Positions 2,137-62,575 of a stretch of 64,000 nucleotides of DNA are shown here, one piece after another. Source of the DNA: Caprella mutica (taxonomy: Eukaryota > Arthropoda > Malacostraca > Amphipoda > Caprellidae). Under the pieces are notes generated by a model. It was not told where the DNA came from and did not search any database. It worked only from the letters and a program-made list of their open reading frames with translations. The position numbers and the translations under genes were made by a program. The stretch covers positions 1 through 64,000 of the forward strand of contig CANNZV010001123.1 in the NCBI GenBank assembly GCA_947561585.1, written 5' to 3'. Position 1 is the first letter of the stretch. Each line of letters starts with the position of its first letter.

Positions 2137-2670
2137 AATTTCTCAAATCACAGTTTTCTAATTTCCTATTATTTCAAAATCTCATCAGTTTTCCATCGTG
2201 TACCCAGACCAATTTTTAAATATCTACAAGCATTATAATTAATAAAGTTACTTTTTGGAAATGTGAAATTAGTAAACTGACAATGAATCATCACGAATTC
2301 AGTTCAACTGTAAAGGCGTCCTTATTTCTTTACTCACCAGTGACTATGTGCATAGGGTGGGGAAAAGGACTTGGGTGTAGCGAAGAATATTATTCTAATG
2401 CTGGCACTGATTGGTAATTGTAACAATGGAATGAATTTATTGTATTGAATGAATTGTAATTAATTGAATTGTATTGAATTATGAATAACTGCATTGTGCT
2501 GAATTATGAATAATTGCATTGTGTTGAATTATGAATAATTGCATTGTGCTGAATTATGAATAATTGCATTGTGTTGAATTTTCAGTTGATTTATATTGAA
2601 CATGCTGTTTTGATTGAACTCAACGTAAAATCCATCATATTAGAGGTTATTTAAACTCTTTATTTAAATC
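2137..2670. other. AT-rich unique spacer with a small 25-bp repeat
   Basis: No gene seen. Positions 2476-2580 hold about four copies of a 25-bp unit (GAATTATGAATAATTGCATT plus GTGCT or GTGTT, alternating). The rest is unique AT-rich sequence. Confidence 0.7.
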
Positions 2671-3050
2671 AGGACACCCATAGTATCAACAGGACACACT
2701 TAGGATCATCAAGACACACTTAGGATCAAAAGGACACACTTAGGATCAACAGGACACACTTAGGATCAATAGGACACACTTAGGATCAATAGGACACACT
2801 TAGGATCAATAGGACACACTTAGGATCAATAGGACACACTTAGGATCAATAGGATACACTTAGGATCAATAGGACACACTTAGGATCAATAGGACACACT
2901 TAGGATCAATAGGACACACTTAAGATCTACAGGAAACTTTTAGGATCAACAGGACACACATAAGATCTACAGGACACACTTCTGATCAACAAGACACACT
3001 TAACATCCATAGGACACACATATGGATCAAGAGGACACACGTATAGCAAC
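2671..3050. repeat. 20-bp tandem array (about 19 copies)
   Basis: Unit AGGACACACTTAGGATCAAT. Central copies are near identical, and both edges are decayed, the usual pattern of unequal exchange. Each unit contains TTAGG, but only once per 20 bp, so it is not telomeric DNA. Confidence 0.95.
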
Positions 3051-3375
3051 AAATAATGTATAGGAATAGAGAAGATAAATATGAATAGAGAACATACATA
3101 GAAACAAGGAGATAAAACACACTTGATTTTGTAACAGATATATAGAAAGTAAAAATATTCTAGAGAATTAATGTAGTAAGCAATAGCTAAGTTAGTAACA
3201 AATTTTCAATTTTTTTGTCTCATATCTCAATACTAAATAGATTGTTAATTAATATTAAAAAACTTTAGGATATATAACTTAAATAGAAAGACGGTATCCA
3301 ACATACAACCATTGGTCATACAATTCATTGTCAGGTCCAGGTTTTTCCACCCTTCTCCTGATGATGAATAGAAAT
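3051..3375. other. Unique AT-rich DNA
   Basis: No gene, repeat or transposon end recognised on either strand. Confidence 0.5.
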
Positions 3376-4184: not shown

Positions 4185-4500
4185 TTGAACAGTTCAACAG
4201 TTTTATTTCATGCAGCCATGAGCCATGCCACTGACTGGTGGTTGGTAACTTTGTTCATGGAGCCACTTTTCTTTCTGACTGCTTCTTCCAGTCCCTTGTA
4301 CTTAATTTCCTTCTGACGTCAGCGATATAGTTTATTATTTATTATACAAGAATTACACTGCAAACTAAACAAGAAGTCGGGAGCGTCTTGTTCCCAGTAC
4401 AAATCTACACAATGGAAGTAACATTTAAGGCAAGCTAAGCTTCTTATAAGCCTTTGGTTCCGAAGCAGGCGTTAAACCCCACATAAATTCAATACAAATT
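4185..4500 (-). mobile_element. Dispersed repeat family B (SINE-like), copy 1
   Basis: Shares with 7270-7490 and 19390-19560 the blocks GCAGCCATG, GAGCCACTTT, CTGACTGCTTC, AGTCCCTTGTACTTAATTTC and, further on, GAAGCAGGCGTTAAACCCC. Orientation follows the reverse-complement reading, which begins with GGGTTTAACG. This copy carries about 120 bp extra between the last two blocks. No polymerase III boxes are convincing, so SINE is only one possibility. Confidence 0.6.
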
Positions 4501-6303: not shown

Positions 6304-7269
6304 GCTAAAAAGTCTTAAATCCACCATATTAATAATAATAATAATAAACTCACTCAAGCCTTATCACATTTCTCTATTTTTATGTCATTATTCCCCGACT
6401 CTTTTCCTGTGCAGAATATTAAATTATCTCGGCAGTATTTTCTGAGTGTTTTTGAAGGTGTCAAATTTGCTTACCTTGCAAATTTCTTATTACGCTCTTC
6501 TCCCTAGCATAGGCAAGAAGGACTTAGTCCTGGGATATTCCCTTGATATCGTTAATGCTCCCTCATTATCTCCATTTGATGTTGAAAGGATATTCCGTAA
6601 ACATTTAGGATACTATTCGAATTCTTATACGAGGGAATATTCCAGGAATATTGGAGAGTTTCGCTAAGATATCATCAGAGGATATTCAGGGAATATTGTA
6701 TTTCAATACTATTCCTAACGAAACTCTTTGGAATACTCTTGGAATATATATTTACGATAGTATTCCAATCGGAATATCTTTTAAATATCACCGGAATTAT
6801 CAACATAGTTAAGTAGAATATTATTCCCAAAATGTTATCGAACGAATATCCTTGGAACTATTGAGATCTACGGGTCTCGTTTTGAAACAATGTCACTGTG
6901 GAATAGAAAGAAAATGTTACTTCCAAAGAAATACTTTTGAATAACCCTGGTACGATTTCAATACTTCTAATTTAGAAATACGCACCAACAATAAACCTCC
7001 CTCCTCATATCAAATTTTTAATCTATCCACGAGCCCCCAGGGGCTCTATCCTGAAGCTGTCTGTGGTGAATGGAAGAGAAGGGATTATGGATTTGTTTGT
7101 TTTTTACCATGTTTATCATTTTTTTTAACGCTACTTGCAGTTTTAGAGGATAGCGCTAGGGTTATGCTCTTCAACTACGAGGTCTTAGATTTTGTGTTAG
7201 GTAGACTCGTAGGCTTCATTTACTATCACCTCTTCATTTTCCTCTATCAACCGTATGCGCAATTACCGG
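6304..7269. other. Unique DNA rich in GGAATATTC-like words
   Basis: No gene recognised. Between 6520 and 6860 words such as GGAATATTCC and AGGATATTC recur on both strands, and GAGAGTTTCGCTAAG (6654) faces CTAACGAAACTCTTTGG (6713), a short inverted repeat. A similar block lies at 3480-3530. This looks like a decayed foldback or MITE. Confidence 0.4.
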
Positions 7270-7490
7270 TACTTGTGTCCCTTTACGTCACATTCCTTGG
7301 TAAGTGACTGCATTCACGGAGTAGCTTTTCTGCAGCCATGACCATTGTCACGGACTTGAGGTTGATGGGATGTTTTCGTTGAGCCACTTTCTTCTCTGAC
7401 TGCTTCGTCTAGTCCCTTGTACTTAATTTCCTTTTGATGTCAGTGATATAGTTTTTGACTCTGAAGCAGACGTTAAACCCCTACTAACTT
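7270..7490 (-). mobile_element. Dispersed repeat family B, copy 2
   Basis: Contains TCACATTCCTTGGTAAGTGA, CTGCATTCACGGAGTAGC, TTTTCTGCAGCCATGACC, AGTCCCTTGTACTTAATTTC and GAAGCAGACGTTAAACCCC. The first three blocks also occur at 19408-19455. Confidence 0.65.
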
Positions 7491-9220: not shown

Positions 9221-9911
9221 TCATTTCCAGCTCCTCTTTAAGACCCCGTAAGAATCCTCTGGAGACGACACACGTGGTTTACCAATTTGATTGTCCGGTC
9301 GACAGATGTAATGTGGGTCATTCACGATCAGTTTTGCCTCAAGGAATTCCTTCAGGCTTTGTAAACCTGATCGTGAATGGGAATATCTGAGGCCTGTCAG
9401 TCCAACTGTCAGACCATCGAATCGACAGACCATTGTTTGTAGGGTGATAATATCAACCCTAATTATTTTTCTCAAATAGAGGAAGCCATTTCTATGGCCT
9501 GAACAGATGTAGGACATAAGCCCCATCCTCCCGTCCGTGAAATAATCGAGAAGTGTGCATTACCTTCTATTTTGAGAAATTAAAAAGCAATCTCTATTTA
9601 TCCATATTATATAAATATAAAAAAGAAGGGTTCATGTACGTGGGGCTTACGACCAAACTCCACCTTGAACAACGCGTTAGTCTATCCTGAAGTGACCAGC
9701 ACTGATGGAAAGACTGATCGTTAGTGGACGTCCTCGTTCAGTGCCTGAAGGAATTATTGACCGTGGATGGCCTGCTAAAACTCTGTACATGTCGGGTACA
9801 TCACGAGTCGTTTGGAACGAAGGATTCAACAGCACAGATACAGTAGCAGCAGCATCCATAGTCACCTCCAGAACGACCATCCAGATCATCCCCCACTTGA
9901 ACCACCGGTAA
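9221..9911. other. Less AT-rich island with open frames, function unknown
   Basis: Base composition is more balanced than in the flanks. The minus strand has a 101-codon frame (9526-9221), and 9677-9911 is open on both strands (70 and 68 codons). I recognise no family, no splice sites that clearly join them and no start context. It could be decayed transposon coding sequence or a chance island. I would not annotate a gene. Confidence 0.25.
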
Positions 9912-19369: not shown

Positions 19370-19560
19370 CGTACAATTTCTGTACATCGATGACCCTTTT
19401 CGTCACATTCCTTGGTAAGTGACTGCATTCACGGAGTAGCTTTTCTGCATCCATGCCACTATCACCGACTATTGATAAAGTACTTTTTGATGAAACCACT
19501 TTCATTTCTTGCAGCTTTTCCAAGAGCAGAAGCAGAAGTTAATCCCCACTAAACTAATGA
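19370..19560 (-). mobile_element. Dispersed repeat family B, copy 3
   Basis: Matches 7270-7490: TCACATTCCTTGGTAAGTGA, CTGCATTCACGGAGTAGC, TTTTCTGCATCCATGCC, then GAAGCAGAAGTTAATCCCC. More diverged in the middle. Confidence 0.6.
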
Positions 19561-56459: not shown

Positions 56460-56570
56460 TTGGCCCCATGCCAAATATGCTAAGACTCTCTGCATTATTC
56501 ATAATCCGCATTGCTATGCTACTCAAATACGAGCAGCATCTGCACTAAACACTGCACAATATATGCCTAG
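56460..56570. repeat. Decayed left edge of the 22-bp satellite
   Basis: ACTAAACACTGCACAATATA then TGCCTAG matches units of the array that resumes at 61331 (CTAAACACTGCGGTGAATAT). Further left, similarity fades. This shows the LTR element split the satellite. Confidence 0.7.
56566..56570. other. Target site duplication CCTAG (left)
   Basis: CCTAG lies directly before TGTCCTGG of the left LTR and again directly after ...CAGCACA of the right LTR (61331-61335). Five bp fits LTR-retrotransposon integration. Confidence 0.9.
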
Positions 56571-58175
56571 TGTCCTGGTACGTTAGGTTGTGAAACAATG
56601 CGAAGGCTAAACACTGTTTTTTATTTTGTAATTTATAGTTTATAATCTTGGCATTGACATAACAAATGTGAATATATCTGGAAAGTACACAAACAATATA
56701 GAAGACAAGAAGTTACATATAAATGGGAACACCTACAGAGAAATGACTGACTACACCTACAGAGAAATGACTGACTACACCTACAGAGAAATGACTGACT
56801 ACACCTACAGAGAAATGACTGACTACACCTACAGAGAAATGACTAACTACACCTACAGAGAAATGACGGACTACACCTACAGAGAAATGACGGACTACAC
56901 CTACAGAGAAATGACGGACTACACCTACAGAGAAATGACGGACTACACCTACAGAGAAATGACGGACTACACCTACAGAGAAATGACGGACTACACCTAC
57001 AGAGAAATGACGGACTACACCTACAGAGAAATGACGGACTACACCTACAGAGAAATGACTGACTACACCTACAGAGAAATGACTGACTACACCTACAGAG
57101 AAATGACTGACTACACCTACAGAGAAATGACTGACTACACCTACAGAGAAATGACGGACTACACCTACAGAGAAATGACGGACTACACCTACAGAGAAAT
57201 GACGGACTACACCTACAGAGAAATGACGGACTACACCTACAGAGAAATGACGGACTACACCTACAGAGAAATGACGGACTACACCTACAGAGAAATGACG
57301 GACTACACCTACAGAGAAATGACTGACTACACCTACAGAGAAATGACTGACTACACCTACAGAGAAATGACTGACTACACCTACAGAGAAATGACTGACT
57401 ACACCTACAGAGAAATGACGGACTACACCTACAGAGAAATGACGGACTACACCTACAGAGAAATGACGGACTACACCTACAGGGAAATGACGGACTACAC
57501 CTACAGGGAAATGACGGACTACACCTACAGGGAAATGACGGACTACACCTACAGGGAAATGACGGACTACACCTACAGGGAAATGACGGACTACACCTAC
57601 AGGGAAATGACGGACTACACCTACAGGGAAATGACGGACTACACCTACAGGGAAATGACGGACTACACCTACAGGGAAATGACGGACTACACCTACAGGG
57701 AAATGACGGACTACACCTACAGGGAAATGACGGACTACACCTGCAGGGAAATGACGGACTACACCTGCAGGGAAATGACGGACTACACCTACAGGGAAAT
57801 GACGGACTACACCTACAGGGAAATGACGGACTACACCTACAGGGAAATGACGGACTACACCTACAGGGAAATGACTACACCTACAGAGAAATGACTACAC
57901 CTATAGAGAACACTTAATAGAACAAAGACAACTCGAATAACACCTACATAATTAAACTACACAATATAAATTATACACTGAAATGTGACACTACGTGGCT
58001 TTACACTAGCTACTATTGACAATGAATGAATGGATAGAGTTTGAGAAATGGTAGCTAGTGTTGCCGTTCGGATTTCTAAAGAATATAATGCGAATTAATG
58101 GCTAATGGTTCTATTGCGAAATTTAATCTTTAATTGATTGAAAATAAAGTATAGAATTAATTGCTGACCAGCACA
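56571..58175 (-). repeat. 3' LTR (1605 bp) containing a 24-bp minisatellite
   Basis: Plus-strand reading starts TGTCCTGGTACGTTAGG and ends GACCAGCACA; in element orientation it therefore runs TGTGCTGG...CCAGGACA. The array (about 56732-57870) has 47 units of CCTACAGAGAAATGACTGAC plus TACA, and the later units read CAGGGAAATG. In element orientation AAAATAAAAAACAG near 56620 is a possible poly(A) signal. A 408-codon frame runs antisense to gag through the array (Tyr-Arg-Glu-Met-Thr-Asp-Tyr-Thr repeats). I consider it a by-product of the 24-bp period. Confidence 0.93.
56732..57870. repeat. 24-bp minisatellite in the 3' LTR (47 units)
   Basis: Order of the ACT/ACG marker in successive units: 4 ACT, 1 variant with ACTAAC, 8 ACG, 4 ACT, 7 ACG, 4 ACT, 3 ACG, then units with CAGGG. 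Two units carry CTGCAGG. Confidence 0.93.
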
Positions 58176-58190
58176 CTCCCCCCAGCGACG
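58176..58190 (-). promoter_or_regulatory. Polypurine tract next to the 3' LTR
   Basis: On the minus strand GCTGGGGGGAG immediately precedes TGTGCTGG of the LTR. This is the expected place for the plus-strand primer of reverse transcription and fixes the element's orientation as minus, in agreement with gag. Confidence 0.8.
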
Positions 58191-58398
58191 AAAGTCGAAA
58201 CCAGTGGACCAAGGAGGAGCTGATCGCAACCAACAATAGCTCACGAAAACAAAAATTAACAATAGAAAACACAGCAATTCCTAAAATATAATAATTATAT
58301 TACAATAATGATTCGTTGAAAGAAGATTCACACGCACATCGAAATTTCCTATAAGATAATGTATTAGAAAATGGTAAGATAATTAGGAATTTTTTTTT
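58191..58398 (-). other. Region between gag and the purine tract
   Basis: About 210 bp without an open frame of note. In an autonomous BEL/Pao element pol would start here. Confidence 0.7.
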
Positions 58399-59895
58399 TT
58401 AATTGTACACTGAATCAAAATTAGGGTCCATTATCTCATCGATATTGTACTGCATGAAGTCTATGAGATCTTGAAATGGAGGAAGGACACCCATGCTGTC
58501 CACGGTGAATTTGTAGCCTTGTGACCTCCATTTGCGTTGTAGCCAATCGGGTAATTTACACCATACTTTTTTTTGGCCAGCATTTAAATTGAAGATCTGG
58601 AGTTCGGTGTTAGTCGGCATGTTCGCCTCGATCATATGACGAAGATGGATTAACTCTTTGAGTTTTGCTTCCGTACGTGGGGGGCGTACGTTTGGCATGT
58701 CATCTAGCCTCTTCTGGATAGTTTGACAGACTCTTATTGGATTTCCGTATTCTTTACCTAAAATCTTCCAAATCTTTTTGAGAGCCAAGTTAGGTGAAGC
58801 TGCTCCAGCTGCCAGAAGCTCTTGTATCACCCTATTTGGACTTCCCACTGTATTAGCCAAGAGAATGGTTAATACATCGAGGGGCTCCAGTGGAACTCCC
58901 CTCATTCGGTTGTCAAGAAGCATGAACCATGACCTGTACCGTTGAGGATCCCCATCGAATGGAGAGATTGATTGCTTGAACAACTCTTGCTTTACCAGGT
59001 GTACCGTAGCAGCGTCCATCCGTTGTTGAATTGGTACTTGACTTCTTATAGGTAGGTGAGAGTGTGTCATAGTCGTTCTCGCGGCACCCAAGTTTCTTGC
59101 AGTAGGAGATGCAGGAGGAAATTGCTGCTGAGCAGTAATGTGGGGTGCCGATACGCTTGTTGCTACATATGGTGAATTAGCGTTACCACAGGTAGCTTCA
59201 CGATTGTTTCCGATAAAATGGAGGCTAGCGGTTTCCAGGTTTATGATATTTTGAGGAACAGGAAGAGAAGGCTGTGGAACTGTAACAGAGGGCACAGATT
59301 CAATTGCTAGAAGAGGGGCCGAAGAGCATGCGCCACCACCGGAAGACACACAGATATCCTCAATGACCAGAGTAGCTACTGCAGAGTCATCCAACTGCGT
59401 GCCTTCTACGAGGTCAATCAGCTCCGAAACTGTACCTCCTCCCATCTTCGAGCGAGATTCCTCTCCTTGTTGATCGCCCGGTGGTTCCTGAAGGCACTGA
59501 ACTGATGCCTCCTCGTTTTGCGATATAGCACTGCGAGTGTCCATGTTTGAGATCTCGTCTTCGTTCATATCGCACAGTGCAGCGTTAGCTATGGCGATAT
59601 ACTGCTTAAAATCTGTTCGCATCTCTGCTTTTTCTCTCTGAGTGGTTTGTGCTTGTTGCAGAGAGGCGATGCAAATATACCTTGCAATTAGCGTGGTGGC
59701 AGCTTCATAGTAGACTATCCATTCTTTTTTGGCATATGCGATAAACGAACGGATGTTGTCTGGATGACTGCCCAGAATTTCTTGCTTCATTAGATTCTTT
59801 AGAGCAACAGAAGTTTCTTCATAGTTTTGCTCCAGGTTTATCAAGGGATTTACTGGAGTACGCTTAGTAGCACCATTTACCGGTGAACGATGCAT
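58399..59895 (-). CDS. gag: Gag-like protein of a BEL/Pao retrotransposon (498 residues)
   Basis: Intact single frame from ATG at 59895 to TAA. The N-terminal 110 residues are helical and charged. Residues about 110-290 are low-complexity, Ser/Thr/Pro/Gln-rich and probably disordered. Residues about 300-400 read like the DUF1759 gag domain of BEL/Pao elements (FDGDPQRYRSWF at 313-324, LDVLTILLANTVG, IQKRLDDM). 440-498 match its usual continuation (KLPDWLQRKWRS, a DLIDFM-like helix, DPNF near the end). In autonomous relatives such a protein assembles the particle and is followed by zinc knuckles, protease and pol. Here it stops right after the DUF1759 region, with no CCHC knuckle. The ATG is the first in the leader, 118 bp inside the 5' LTR. 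It is the only credible protein-coding gene in the window. Family assignment is from memory of the motif pattern. Confidence 0.85.
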   Translation of the reverse strand: MHRSPVNGATKRTPVNPLINLEQNYEETSVALKNLMKQEILGSHPDNIRSFIAYAKKEWIVYYEAATTLIARYICIASLQQAQTTQREKAEMRTDFKQYIAIANAALCDMNEDEISNMDTRSAISQNEEASVQCLQEPPGDQQGEESRSKMGGGTVSELIDLVEGTQLDDSAVATLVIEDICVSSGGGACSSAPLLAIESVPSVTVPQPSLPVPQNIINLETASLHFIGNNREATCGNANSPYVATSVSAPHITAQQQFPPASPTARNLGAARTTMTHSHLPIRSQVPIQQRMDAATVHLVKQELFKQSISPFDGDPQRYRSWFMLLDNRMRGVPLEPLDVLTILLANTVGSPNRVIQELLAAGAASPNLALKKIWKILGKEYGNPIRVCQTIQKRLDDMPNVRPPRTEAKLKELIHLRHMIEANMPTNTELQIFNLNAGQKKVWCKLPDWLQRKWRSQGYKFTVDSMGVLPPFQDLIDFMQYNIDEIMDPNFDSVYN

Positions 59896-60013
59896 GATGG
59901 CTTTGGAGTTAGTAGAAACGAGTGGAAATCGTCACTCGATGTAACTTTATCAGTAAACTTTATTTGTAGGTGGAAATCTTCACCTCAGTTAGCCTTGATA
60001 GTTTATAAATTAC
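59896..60013 (-). promoter_or_regulatory. Gag leader with two matching hairpins
   Basis: CGAGTGGAAATCGTCACTCG (59919-59938) and AGGTGGAAATCTTCACCT (59968-59985) each fold into a short stem with GTGGAAATC-type content, spaced about 50 bp apart. This is where primer binding and packaging signals normally lie. Their role is inference. Confidence 0.5.
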
Positions 60014-61330
60014 TGTCCTGGTACGTTAGGTTGTGAAACAATGCGAAGGCTAAACACTGTTTTTTATTTTGTAATTTATAGTTTATAATCTTGGCATTGA
60101 CATAACAAATGTGAATATATCTGGAAAGTACACAAACAATATAGAAGACAAGAAGTTACATATAAATGGGAACACCTACAGAGAAATGACTGACTACACC
60201 TACAGAGAAATGACTGACTACACCTACAGAGAAATGACTGACTACACCTACAGAGAAATGACTGACTACACCTACAGAGAAATGACTAACTACACCTACA
60301 GAGAAATGACGGACTACACCTACAGAGAAATGACGGACTACACCTACAGAGAAATGACGGACTACACCTACAGAGAAATGACGGACTACACCTACAGAGA
60401 AATGACGGACTACACCTACAGAGAAATGACGGACTACACCTACAGAGAAATGACGGACTACACCTACAGAGAAATGACGGACTACACCTACAGAGAAATG
60501 ACTGACTACACCTACAGAGAAATGACTGACTACACCTACAGAGAAATGACTGACTACACCTACAGAGAAATGACTGACTACACCTACAGAGAAATGACGG
60601 ACTACACCTACAGAGAAATGACGGACTACACCTACAGAGAAATGACGGACTACACCTACAGGGAAATGACGGACTACACCTACAGGGAAATGACGGACTA
60701 CACCTACAGGGAAATGACGGACTACACCTACAGGGAAATGACGGACTACACCTACAGGGAAATGACGGACTACACCTACAGGGAAATGACGGACTACACC
60801 TACAGGGAAATGACGGACTACACCTACAGGGAAATGACGGACTACACCTACAGGGAAATGACGGACTACACCTACAGGGAAATGACGGACTACACCTACA
60901 GGGAAATGACGGACTACACCTGCAGGGAAATGACGGACTACACCTACAGGGAAATGACGGACTACACCTACAGGGAAATGACGGACTACACCTACAGGGA
61001 AATGACGGACTACACCTACAGGGAAATGACTACACCTACAGAGAAATGACTACACCTATAGAGAACACTTAATAGAACAAAGACAACTCGAATAACACCT
61101 ACATAATTAAACTACACAATATAAATTATACACTGAAATGTGACACTACGTGGCTTTACACTAGCTACTATTGACAATGAATGAATGGATAGAGTTTGAG
61201 AAATGGTAGCTAGTGTTGCCGTTCGGATTTCTAAAGAATATAATGCGAATTAATGGCTAATGGTTCTATTGCGAAATTTAATCTTTAATTGATTGAAAAT
61301 AAAGTATAGAATTAATTGCTGACCAGCACA
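60014..61330 (-). repeat. 5' LTR (1317 bp) containing a 24-bp minisatellite
   Basis: By eye identical to the 3' LTR outside the array, and 288 bp shorter, which is exactly 12 units. Promoter and start of the element RNA should lie here, transcribed on the minus strand. The antisense open frame is 312 codons. Confidence 0.93.
60173..61030. repeat. 24-bp minisatellite in the 5' LTR (35 units)
   Basis: Marker order 4 ACT, ACTAAC variant, 8 ACG, 4 ACT, 3 ACG, then CAGGG units with a single CTGCAGG. Relative to the other LTR it lacks one block of 7 ACG plus 4 ACT and one CAGGG unit. Confidence 0.93.
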
Positions 61331-62575
61331 CCTAGATGCTGCGGTGAATATGCCTAGACGCTGCGGTGAATATGCCTAGACGCTGCTGTGAATATGCCTA
61401 AACGCTGCTGTGAATATACCTAAGCGCTGCGGTGAATATGCCTAGACGCTGCGGTGAATATGCCTAGATGCTGCGGTGAATATGCCTAGATGCTGCGGTG
61501 AATATGCCTAGATGCTGCGGTGAATATGCCTAGACGCTGCGGTGAATATGCCTAAGCGCTGCGGTGAATATGCCTAGACGCTGCGGTGAATATGCCTAGA
61601 CGCTGCTGTGAATATGCCTAGACGCTGCGGTGAATATGCCTAAACACTGCGGTGAATATGCCTAAACGCTGCGGTGAATATGCCTAAACGCTGCGGTGAA
61701 TATGCCTTAACGCTGCGGTGAATATGCCTAAACGCTGCGGTGAATATGCCTAAACACTGCGGTGAATATGCCTAAACGCTGCGGTGAATATGCCTAAACA
61801 CTGCTGTGAATATGCCTAAACGCTGCTGTGAATATGCCTAAACGCTGCTGTGAATATGCCTAGATGCTGCGGTGAATATGCCTAGACGCTGCGGTGAATA
61901 TGCCTAATCGCTGCGGTGAATATGCCCAGATGCTGCGGTGAATATGCCTAGACGCTGCTGTGAATATGCCTAGACGCTGCTGTGAATATGCCTAAACACT
62001 GCGGTAAAAATGCCTAAACGCTGCTGTGAATATGCCTAGATGCTGCGGTGAATATGCCTAGACGCTGCGGTGAATATGCCTAATCGCTGCGGTGAATATG
62101 CCCAGATGCTGCGGTGAATATGCCTAGACGCTGCTGTGAATATGCCTAGACGCTGCTGTGAATATGCCTAGACGCTGCGGAGAGAATGCCTAGATGCTGC
62201 GGTGAATATGCCTAGACGCTGCGGAGAGAATGCCTAGATGCTGCGGAGAGAATGCCTAGATGCTGCGGTGAATATGCCTAGACGCTGCGGAGAGAATGCC
62301 TAGATGCTGCGGAGAAAATGCCTAGATGCTGCGGTGAATATGCCTAGACGCTGCGGAGAGAATGCCTAGATGCTGCGGAGAGAATGCCTAGATGCTGTGG
62401 TGAATATGCCTAGACGCTGCGGAGAGAATGCCTAGATGCTGCGGAGAGAATGCCTAGATGCTGCGGTGAATATGCCTAGACGCTGCTAGGAATATATTTA
62501 GATGCTACGGAAAGAATTTCGAATTGCTGCAGAAAAATACACTTGACACTGCGTAGAATATACTTAGATGGATGC
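61331..62575. repeat. 22-bp satellite (about 53 copies) with a 66-bp higher-order end
   Basis: Unit CTAGACGCTGCGGTGAATAT plus GC. Units starting GACGCTGCGGAGAG occur at 62215, 62281, 62347 and 62413, a 66-bp higher-order repeat made of three 22-mers. It decays after about 62500. The first five bases are the right target duplication of the LTR element. Confidence 0.95.

What the first reader, a model, noticed from the sequence alone, without database searches (positions are those of the whole stretch)
56571..61330. Gag-only LTR retrotransposon whose LTRs each carry a long minisatellite
Seen: TG...CA LTRs, CCTAG target duplication on both sides, purine tract at the 3' LTR, one intact 498-residue gag, no pol, and a 24-bp tandem array making up most of each LTR. 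Known: BEL/Pao elements encode gag and pol together; gag-only elements are described mainly in plants. Inference: a recently active non-autonomous BEL/Pao derivative that spreads a ready-made minisatellite, and so could be one source of the many arrays in this genome.
Basis: partly seen in the sequence, partly recalled or inferred. Interest (0 to 1): 0.88.

Follow-up and report, generated by a model that had tools for sequence, protein, structure and literature searches.

The report
Gag-only retrotransposon with minisatellite LTRs
A stripped-down jumping element that kept only its gag (particle-protein) gene carries a long, length-variable 24-bp minisatellite inside both end repeats, is likely copied by the enzymes of a full-length sister family in the same genome, and has carried that minisatellite to many new sites.

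Summary
It is not a one-off. The same genome (903 Mb) holds many copies; 19 of 22 loci with both ends read have target duplications of at least 5 bp. A sister family shares LTR arms, leader and tail but carries gag-pol (RVT_1, Pao Peptidase_A17, DUF5641), one copy with an unbroken 1957-aa frame. All 22 gag-only copies compared share one pol-deletion junction. Two mosaic lineages show gag-only and full-length forms recombining, so their RNAs were likely packaged together. The array belongs to the whole family, full-length copies included, and is hypervariable: the two LTRs of one element differ in 19 of 23 elements, including 7 of 10 with no substitution in the compared LTR arms. It persists in solo LTRs and reaches about 10 kb at one locus. 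So the element spreads a minisatellite, but only its own kind: no other array in the window shares its unit. Whether lengths change during reverse transcription or later in DNA is not settled; an age-only model was not rejected (p=0.20).

The parts
56566..56570 (.). target-site duplication CCTAG, low side
61331..61335 (.). target-site duplication CCTAG, high side (also the first bases of a unit of the 22-bp target array)
56571..58175 (-). 3' LTR, 1605 bp
56571..56728 (-). armB of the 3' LTR (sense 3' part; holds the only AATAAA of the two arms)
56729..57895 (-). 24-bp minisatellite in the 3' LTR, 48.8 copies
57910..58175 (-). armA of the 3' LTR (sense 5' part)
58176..58183 (-). polypurine tract GGGGGGAG (sense) next to the 3' LTR
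58176..58398 (-). tail (3' untranslated region), shared with gag-pol copies from about its 10th base
58389..58415 (-). pol-deletion junction: gag homology to gag-pol copies stops at gag nt 1481 and resumes at about tail nt 10; same junction in 22 of 22 gag-only copies compared
58399..59895 (-). gag ORF, 498 aa, ends before the zinc-knuckle-like part of its relatives
59896..60013 (-). leader, 118 bp, begins GTAATTTATA; contains no TGG
60014..61330 (-). 5' LTR, 1317 bp
60014..60171 (-). armB of the 5' LTR
60172..61050 (-). 24-bp minisatellite in the 5' LTR, 36.8 copies
61065..61330 (-). armA of the 5' LTR
56549..56570 (.). degenerate in-phase unit of the 22-bp array on the other side of the element (15 of 22 matches): the insertion lies at the edge of that array
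61331..62486 (.). 22-bp target array, 52.5 copies, unrelated unit

Best explanation
This is a gag-only LTR retrotransposon that is likely mobilised in trans by the reverse transcriptase and integrase of a gag-pol BEL/Pao sister family in the same genome, and both forms carry a hypervariable minisatellite inside their LTRs. Shown: one shared pol deletion, LTR arms, leader and tail shared with gag-pol copies, target duplications of at least 5 bp at 19 of 22 loci, and gag-only/gag-pol mosaics. The mosaics suggest that the two RNAs were reverse-transcribed together, which I read as packaging in the same particles. The only AATAAA of the LTR arms lies beyond the array, so the array is predicted to be part of the genomic RNA and to be copied in each cycle. 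Template slippage within or between the repeats would then add or drop whole units, as retroviral reverse transcriptases do with direct repeats. An insertion deposits two arrays, and a solo LTR keeps one. Once in the chromosome an array can probably also change at the DNA level, up to about 10 kb at one locus.
For: Gag-pol partner: copies on C2968, C1516, C2524 and C2291 with the same LTR arms, leader and tail and about 4.5 kb between gag and tail. In pieces of the C2968 copy Peptidase_A17, RVT_1 and DUF5641 pass the Pfam cut-off, zf-CCHC and Integrase_H2C2 do not. On C2968 gag and RT lie in one 1957-aa open frame. One deletion junction in 22 of 22 gag-only copies. Target duplications of 5 bp or more in 19 of 22 loci. 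Mosaics: five copies match gag-pol copies at 166 of 168 diagnostic sites up to position 1454, then the gag-only group at 24 of 24; two other copies (C3965, C12a) switch twice, at 160/167 and 1378/1393. In one search every LTR with both arms found has an array except the two of C1156. LTR pairs differ in 17 of 21 elements read, plus C626 and C24 by coordinates. Window and C40 copies: leader, gag and tail 100% identical, yet all four arrays differ. Solo LTR on C269 with CCTAC on both sides and 14.6 units. Direct-repeat deletion by reverse transcriptase: PMC3187697 (passages).
Against: Timing is not settled: array changes against substitutions in LTR arms fit an age-only model (heterogeneity p=0.20, n=21). 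Two overlapping contig ends of one locus (C2418, C2573) carry different 5' arrays, so change after insertion, or assembly error, also occurs. Selection on gag in the gag-only lineage is weakly supported: C186 against the rest N 14.5, S 10.5, p=0.015; within the young group N 17.5, S 8.5, p=0.22. Three of 22 loci lack a perfect duplication (C362, C1156, C1394). Three of those with one (window, C2968, C12b) lie in repeats, where it weighs less. No transcript or particle data. No Pfam, NCBIfam or PDB sequence match for this gag.
Confidence: 0.82

Rival explanations
1. The array changes length only in chromosomal DNA (replication slippage, unequal exchange, gene conversion between LTRs) after insertion; reverse transcription merely copies it.
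For: Age-only model not rejected; two array versions at one locus (C2418/C2573); C24's array of about 10 kb beside its 5' armB against 384 bp in its 3' LTR; DNA-level remodelling is claimed for SVA/LAVA VNTRs (PMC4432496, abstract and section list).
Against: 7 of 10 elements with no substitution in their compared LTR arms already differ in array; between the window and C40 insertions leader, gag and tail (1838 bp) have no difference while each pairing of their arrays shows 2-3 indel events; C40's own LTRs differ by one substitution.
Confidence: 0.35
2. The array is a working U3 enhancer (or R-region) repeat kept by selection, like retroviral enhancer repeats grown long.
For: Present in gag-only and gag-pol copies alike with a shared unit core TGTAGGTGTAGTC..TCATTTC; LTR enhancer repeats of retroviruses vary in copy number and alter expression (PMC3187697, passages).
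Against: Both LTRs of the C1156 copy share a deletion that removes the array, so that copy probably moved without it, although no duplication is visible there; arrays of about 4 units occur.
Confidence: 0.35
3. The gag-only copies are plain decay products; gag is open only because the copies are young.
For: Within the youngest group N:S is near neutral (p=0.22); some copies carry stops or frameshifts.
Against: One shared junction, mosaic lineages and separate insertions with their own target duplications mean that the deleted form itself multiplied; C186 against the rest shows fewer amino-acid changes than neutral (p=0.015).
Confidence: 0.2
4. The two-LTR structure or the array lengths are assembly artefacts.
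For: Some contigs end in or beside such an LTR (C4721, C2450, C2418/C2573).
Against: Arrays of one element are letter for letter the same in C5292, C186 and C2968; insertions have their own flanks and duplications.
Confidence: 0.03

Closest known systems
BEL/Pao LTR retrotransposons (e.g. Drosophila roo: one ORF, LTRs of 428/429 bp; PMC3087523, passages; that roo is BEL/Pao is recalled)
   Same: Gag-pol sister copies: long single frame, Pao peptidase, RT, DUF5641, LTRs with TG...CA and 5-bp duplications.
   Different: The window element has lost everything after the first part of gag; its LTRs are mostly minisatellite.
TR-GAG / gag-only non-autonomous LTR elements of plants (search listing only; definition recalled)
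   Same: LTRs, leader, intact gag, no pol, presumed use of a partner's enzymes.
   Different: BEL/Pao superfamily, partner identified in the same genome, mosaics with the partner, and no zinc-knuckle part in the retained protein.
Ogre/Tat elements: 3'-UTR tandem repeats that seed satellites (soybean Gmr9 PMC3305785, passages; Lathyrus PMC7004042, passages)
   Same: Tandem arrays carried by an LTR element, variable, able to give rise to long arrays.
   Different: There the array lies between coding region and LTR; here it is in the LTR, so two per element, and it survives in solo LTRs.
[quoted passage not shown] Kelly 1994, seen only as reference and table entry in PMC6947457)
   Same: Minisatellite born inside an LTR.
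   Different: As recalled, local expansion at single LTRs; here the array is inherited by the mobile family.
SVA/LAVA VNTR composite retrotransposons (PMC4432496, abstract and section list)
   Same: Retrotransposon-borne VNTR with ordered unit types, moved in trans by another element.
   Different: Non-LTR, hominoid; the VNTR is a central domain, not in terminal repeats.

Membership tests
BEL/Pao | pol with Pao-type peptidase, RT and integrase | tested here: not met
   The window element has no pol. Its sister copy on C2968 has Peptidase_A17 138.8 bits (cut-off 22.3), RVT_1 30.9 (29.6), DUF5641 42.5 (23.1); integrase zinc-binding domain only 21.5 of 25.5 and no integrase core listed
BEL/Pao | common descent with a BEL/Pao element (LTR arms, leader, gag, tail) | tested here: met
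   armA 86-98%, armB 96-99%, gag 83-84% nt identity to C2968, C1516, C2524, C2291
BEL/Pao | LTR TG...CA with short target duplication (4-6 bp, recalled) | tested here: met
   5-6 bp in 19 of 22 loci of the family
BEL/Pao | tRNA primer-binding site next to the 5' LTR | tested here: inconclusive
   No TGG in the leader; a 10-nt complement to armB exists, reached in 8 of 500 shuffles
gag-only non-autonomous LTR element (TR-GAG-like) | two LTRs, polypurine tract, intact gag, no pol | tested here: met
gag-only non-autonomous LTR element (TR-GAG-like) | mobilised in trans by an autonomous relative | tested here: inconclusive
   Partner present and mosaics found; no transposition assay
LTR-borne minisatellite (MaLR type) | tandem array inside the LTR, unit of 10-100 bp | tested here: met
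Ogre-type 3'-UTR array | array between coding region and 3' LTR | tested here: not met
   array lies between armA and armB of each LTR
retroviral U3 enhancer repeat | repeats upstream of the transcription start that raise transcription | not testable with these tools
   no transcript data; U3/R border unknown

The most novel reading that the evidence does not exclude
The LTR pair is a mobile satellite nursery: an unusually changeable minisatellite that is re-copied, and re-sized, at each retrotransposition, planted in pairs at new sites, frozen as solo LTRs, and sometimes let loose to grow into a satellite of about 10 kb that has outrun its LTR (C24). The gag-only form is more than a parasite: since the sister makes gag and pol as one 1957-aa frame with no separate Gag in sight, gag-only copies may supply the extra capsid protein that particles need, a two-part system with division of labour.
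Probability: 0.25. Interest if true: 0.82.

Novelty: new variant of a known kind. Interest (0 to 1): 0.62.

Why it matters
It joins two questions usually kept apart: how minisatellites get to new places, and how non-autonomous LTR elements live off their relatives. Here one genome holds the full-length partner, the deleted form, recombinants between them, young insertions, solo LTRs and an overgrown array, so the rate and the moment of array change (copying or chromosome) could be measured by comparing donor and daughter insertions.

Tried and rejected
Segmental duplication as the cause of the two LTRs: rejected; C40 and other copies sit at different sites with their own duplications. The element as source of the window's other arrays: rejected by unit comparison. 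The plus-strand ORFs of 408 and 312 aa through the arrays: set aside, since a 24-bp unit keeps its frame and often lacks stops. Self-priming through the 10-nt complement between leader start and armB: not adopted; 8 of 500 shuffles reach it and the gag-pol copies aligned have a changed base in it. AlphaFold model of gag from two sequences: mean pLDDT 38, not used. No PDB sequence match for gag or an RT piece. The protein search for gag scored the 7999 candidates sharing most words and gave one relative, P0001, an unnamed JGI protein of 813 aa without Pfam hits. Selection on gag in the mosaic lineage: uninformative, one fixed difference from gag-pol copies in codons 1-445. Age-only test of array change: not rejected. 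No tRNA in the window. Literature: ten searches, of which I saw the top listings only (one gave no paper), listed no BEL/Pao family with a family-wide minisatellite in its LTRs; the library holds open-licence PMC papers only. PMC3442997 (Anopheles Pao-Bel) was searched for tandem, minisatellite and gag: 0 each in the main text. PMC9659126 passages gave no such case.
Full report
OBSERVATION. The element runs on the minus strand. Both LTRs, the CCTAG duplication, the purine tract and the 498-aa gag are where the finding puts them. The LTRs have three parts, in sense order: armA (266 bp), the array, armB (158 bp). The arms are identical between the two LTRs (424 of 424 bp). The arrays hold 36.8 (5') and 48.8 (3') copies of 24 bp; coded by unit variant they differ by one block of 11 units and one single unit.

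TARGET. The element sits at the edge of a 22-bp array. With the element and one CCTAG removed, the array phase runs on, the unit before the insertion matching the consensus at 15 of 22 places. CCTAG recurs in that array, so this duplication alone is modest evidence. Elsewhere the duplications differ from copy to copy: 19 of 22 loci of the family with both ends read have at least 5 bp (16 of 19 labelled; C948 from the flanks printed, C1115, C40); C362, C1156 and C1394 do not. The 22 include four gag-pol copies and one solo LTR. Contigs C2418 and C2573 hold the same locus at overlapping ends and count once. The insertions of the window, C2968 and C12b lie in repeats, where a duplication weighs less.

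FAMILY. The window lies in an assembly of 903,207,152 bases in 7200 contigs. The gag search scored 86 of 969 candidates and gave 112 matches; the armB search scored 40 of 102 and the armA search 40 of 96. Copy numbers are therefore lower bounds. The best gag matches are gag-only copies at 94-100% identity; a group at about 73-80% holds gag-pol copies and gag-only mosaics; other gag-pol relatives follow at 37-60%.

PARTNER. Four loci (C2968, C1516, C2524, C2291) have the same LTR arms, leader and tail but about 4.5 kb more between gag and tail. Scanned in pieces, the C2968 copy has RVT_1, Pao Peptidase_A17 and DUF5641 above cut-off, and a zinc knuckle and an integrase zinc-binding domain below it; no integrase core was listed. 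The gag and RT matches on C2968 lie in one open frame of 1957 aa. A search with its RT/peptidase piece scored 86 of 1503 candidates and found 6 loci at 87-100% identity (C2968, C1516, C996, C362, C2524, C2291); the next relatives reach at most 65%. So the gag-pol form was found at few loci.

ONE DELETION. In 22 of 22 gag-only copies whose gag end was read, gag runs to the same base, then joins the region at the end of pol by the same junction; in 4 of 4 gag-pol copies gag continues. Left out of that comparison were C2573 (same locus as C2418) and fragmentary or broken loci such as C373, C1223, C289 and C1113. P0001 has, to the eye, zinc knuckles just after the point where the gag-only protein stops (no Pfam hit), and the weak zf-CCHC match of C2968 lies in the deleted part. 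So the retained protein likely lacks the nucleocapsid part.

MOSAICS. At 192 sites in leader and gag where gag-only (C1123, C186, C5292) and gag-pol (four copies) groups differ, five gag-only copies (C12b, C164, C368, C691, C2450) carry gag-pol states at 166 of 168 sites up to position 1454 and gag-only states at all 24 sites from 1455. C3965 carries gag-only states to 160, gag-pol states from 167 to 1378 with four exceptions in 148 sites, and gag-only states from 1393. C12a follows the same pattern, with a stretch of 23 sites it does not resolve and a few further exceptions. These need at least two separate recombination histories between the two forms. The plain route is template switching between co-packaged RNAs; that step is inferred.

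SELECTION. dN/dS between the main gag-only group and gag-pol copies is 0.29-0.35, leaving out C2418 (0.43-0.46), whose frame ends early; that path includes the gag-pol lineage. Against the unanimous rest of the gag-only group, C186 has N 14.5 and S 10.5 (neutral share of N 0.773, p=0.015); inside the young group N 17.5 and S 8.5 (p=0.22); the mosaic lineage has one fixed difference and says nothing. So constraint on gag in the gag-only form is suggested, not proven.

THE ARRAY. In one search every LTR in which both arms were found has an array, except the two of C1156, which share an array-removing deletion. Among unit tokens counted 24 bp is commonest (683), then 20 (245), 25 (64) and 26 (12). 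Unit types often follow one order from armA to armB. Lengths run from about 3.4 to 77.7 copies within LTRs read whole. Seventeen of 21 elements differ in array between their own LTRs (not C5292, C186, C2968, and the C948 tandem, which shows one unit substitution but no indel). By coordinates C626 (LTRs of 1841 and 2091 bp) and C24 also differ, giving 19 of 23; C1156 and copies with one LTR unread are left out. Over the 21 elements there are 29 array indel events against 31 substitutions in the arms (part of armA for C2291); 10 elements have no substitution, gaps not counted, and 7 of these differ in array. A model in which both simply grow with age is not rejected (p=0.20).

SPREAD AND OVERGROWTH. 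The exact 22-mer TCATTTCYCTGTAGGTGTAGTC occurs 2406 times (1420 + 986), its backward control 0 times. C269 is a solo LTR with 14.6 units and CCTAC on both sides. C4:1708566-1710553 is an array of about 2 kb between an armB of 92% identity and two pieces of armA of 88-89%. On C24 an array ends at 800581 next to armB and gag; each of nine sampled stretches back to about 790637 is array and the last 3.1 kb were read whole; beyond it lies DNA with no armA. That is about 9.9 kb, some 410 units if unbroken, against 384 bp in the 3' LTR. I read this as an array that outgrew its LTR; recombination with another array is not excluded.

PLACE IN THE RNA. In the window copy the only AATAAA of the two arms is in armB, beyond the array; 11 of 14 aligned copies keep it. 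A transcript ending there would contain the array at its 3' end. TATA-like words lie on both sides of the array, so U3 or R cannot be told apart. The leader has no TGG for a usual tRNA primer.

OTHER ARRAYS. Arrays of period 9 or more, the element's own included, cover 32,242 of 64,000 bases of the window. Apart from the element's own two, none found by TRF resembles its unit at the threshold used.

KNOWN CASES. Passages read: soybean Gmr9 (PMC3305785) and Lathyrus Ogre (PMC7004042) carry arrays beside, not in, the LTR. PMC6947457 cites mouse minisatellites within LTRs. PMC3187697 describes loss of direct repeats by template switching and copy-number change of LTR enhancer repeats. A BEL/Pao family with a heritable, hypervariable minisatellite in its LTRs, and a gag-only form with mosaics, did not appear in the top listings of ten searches. 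I therefore call it a new variant of known kinds.

Noticed in passing
window 1-64000: Half of the window (32,242 bases, the element's own arrays included) is tandem arrays with period 9 or more, of many unrelated units.
   Followed up: partly
L046 (C24:797500-807400) and C24:790637-800581: An array of the LTR unit of about 9.9 kb joins armB and gag on one side and other DNA without armA on the other.
   Followed up: partly
L045 (C1113), 2670-3252: A 24-unit array joined to armB and a partial gag, again without armA found upstream.
   Followed up: no
L052 (C2968), 1-1428 and 9445-9901; L027 (C12b) flanks: Other family copies also lie inside tandem repeats (18-bp units on C2968; an AT-rich repeat on C12b). 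Preference for arrays was not tested against the genome's background.
   Followed up: no
L019/L020 (C948:35298-42577): Two gag-only bodies with three LTRs in tandem sharing the middle LTR; the three arrays have no indel between them.
   Followed up: partly
L024/L025 (ends of C2418 and C2573): Two contigs overlap at one element with matching flanks (383 and 194 bp, no mismatch, a few gaps) but 5' arrays of 532 and 573 bp: heterozygosity or assembly error.
   Followed up: partly
window 59896-60013: No tRNA-type TGG primer site beside the 5' LTR; the first ten leader bases complement a stretch of armB.
   Followed up: partly
window 4206-4330, 7101-7487, 19391-19522: Pieces of another dispersed repeat, also found in L026, L041/L045 and L044.
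   Followed up: no
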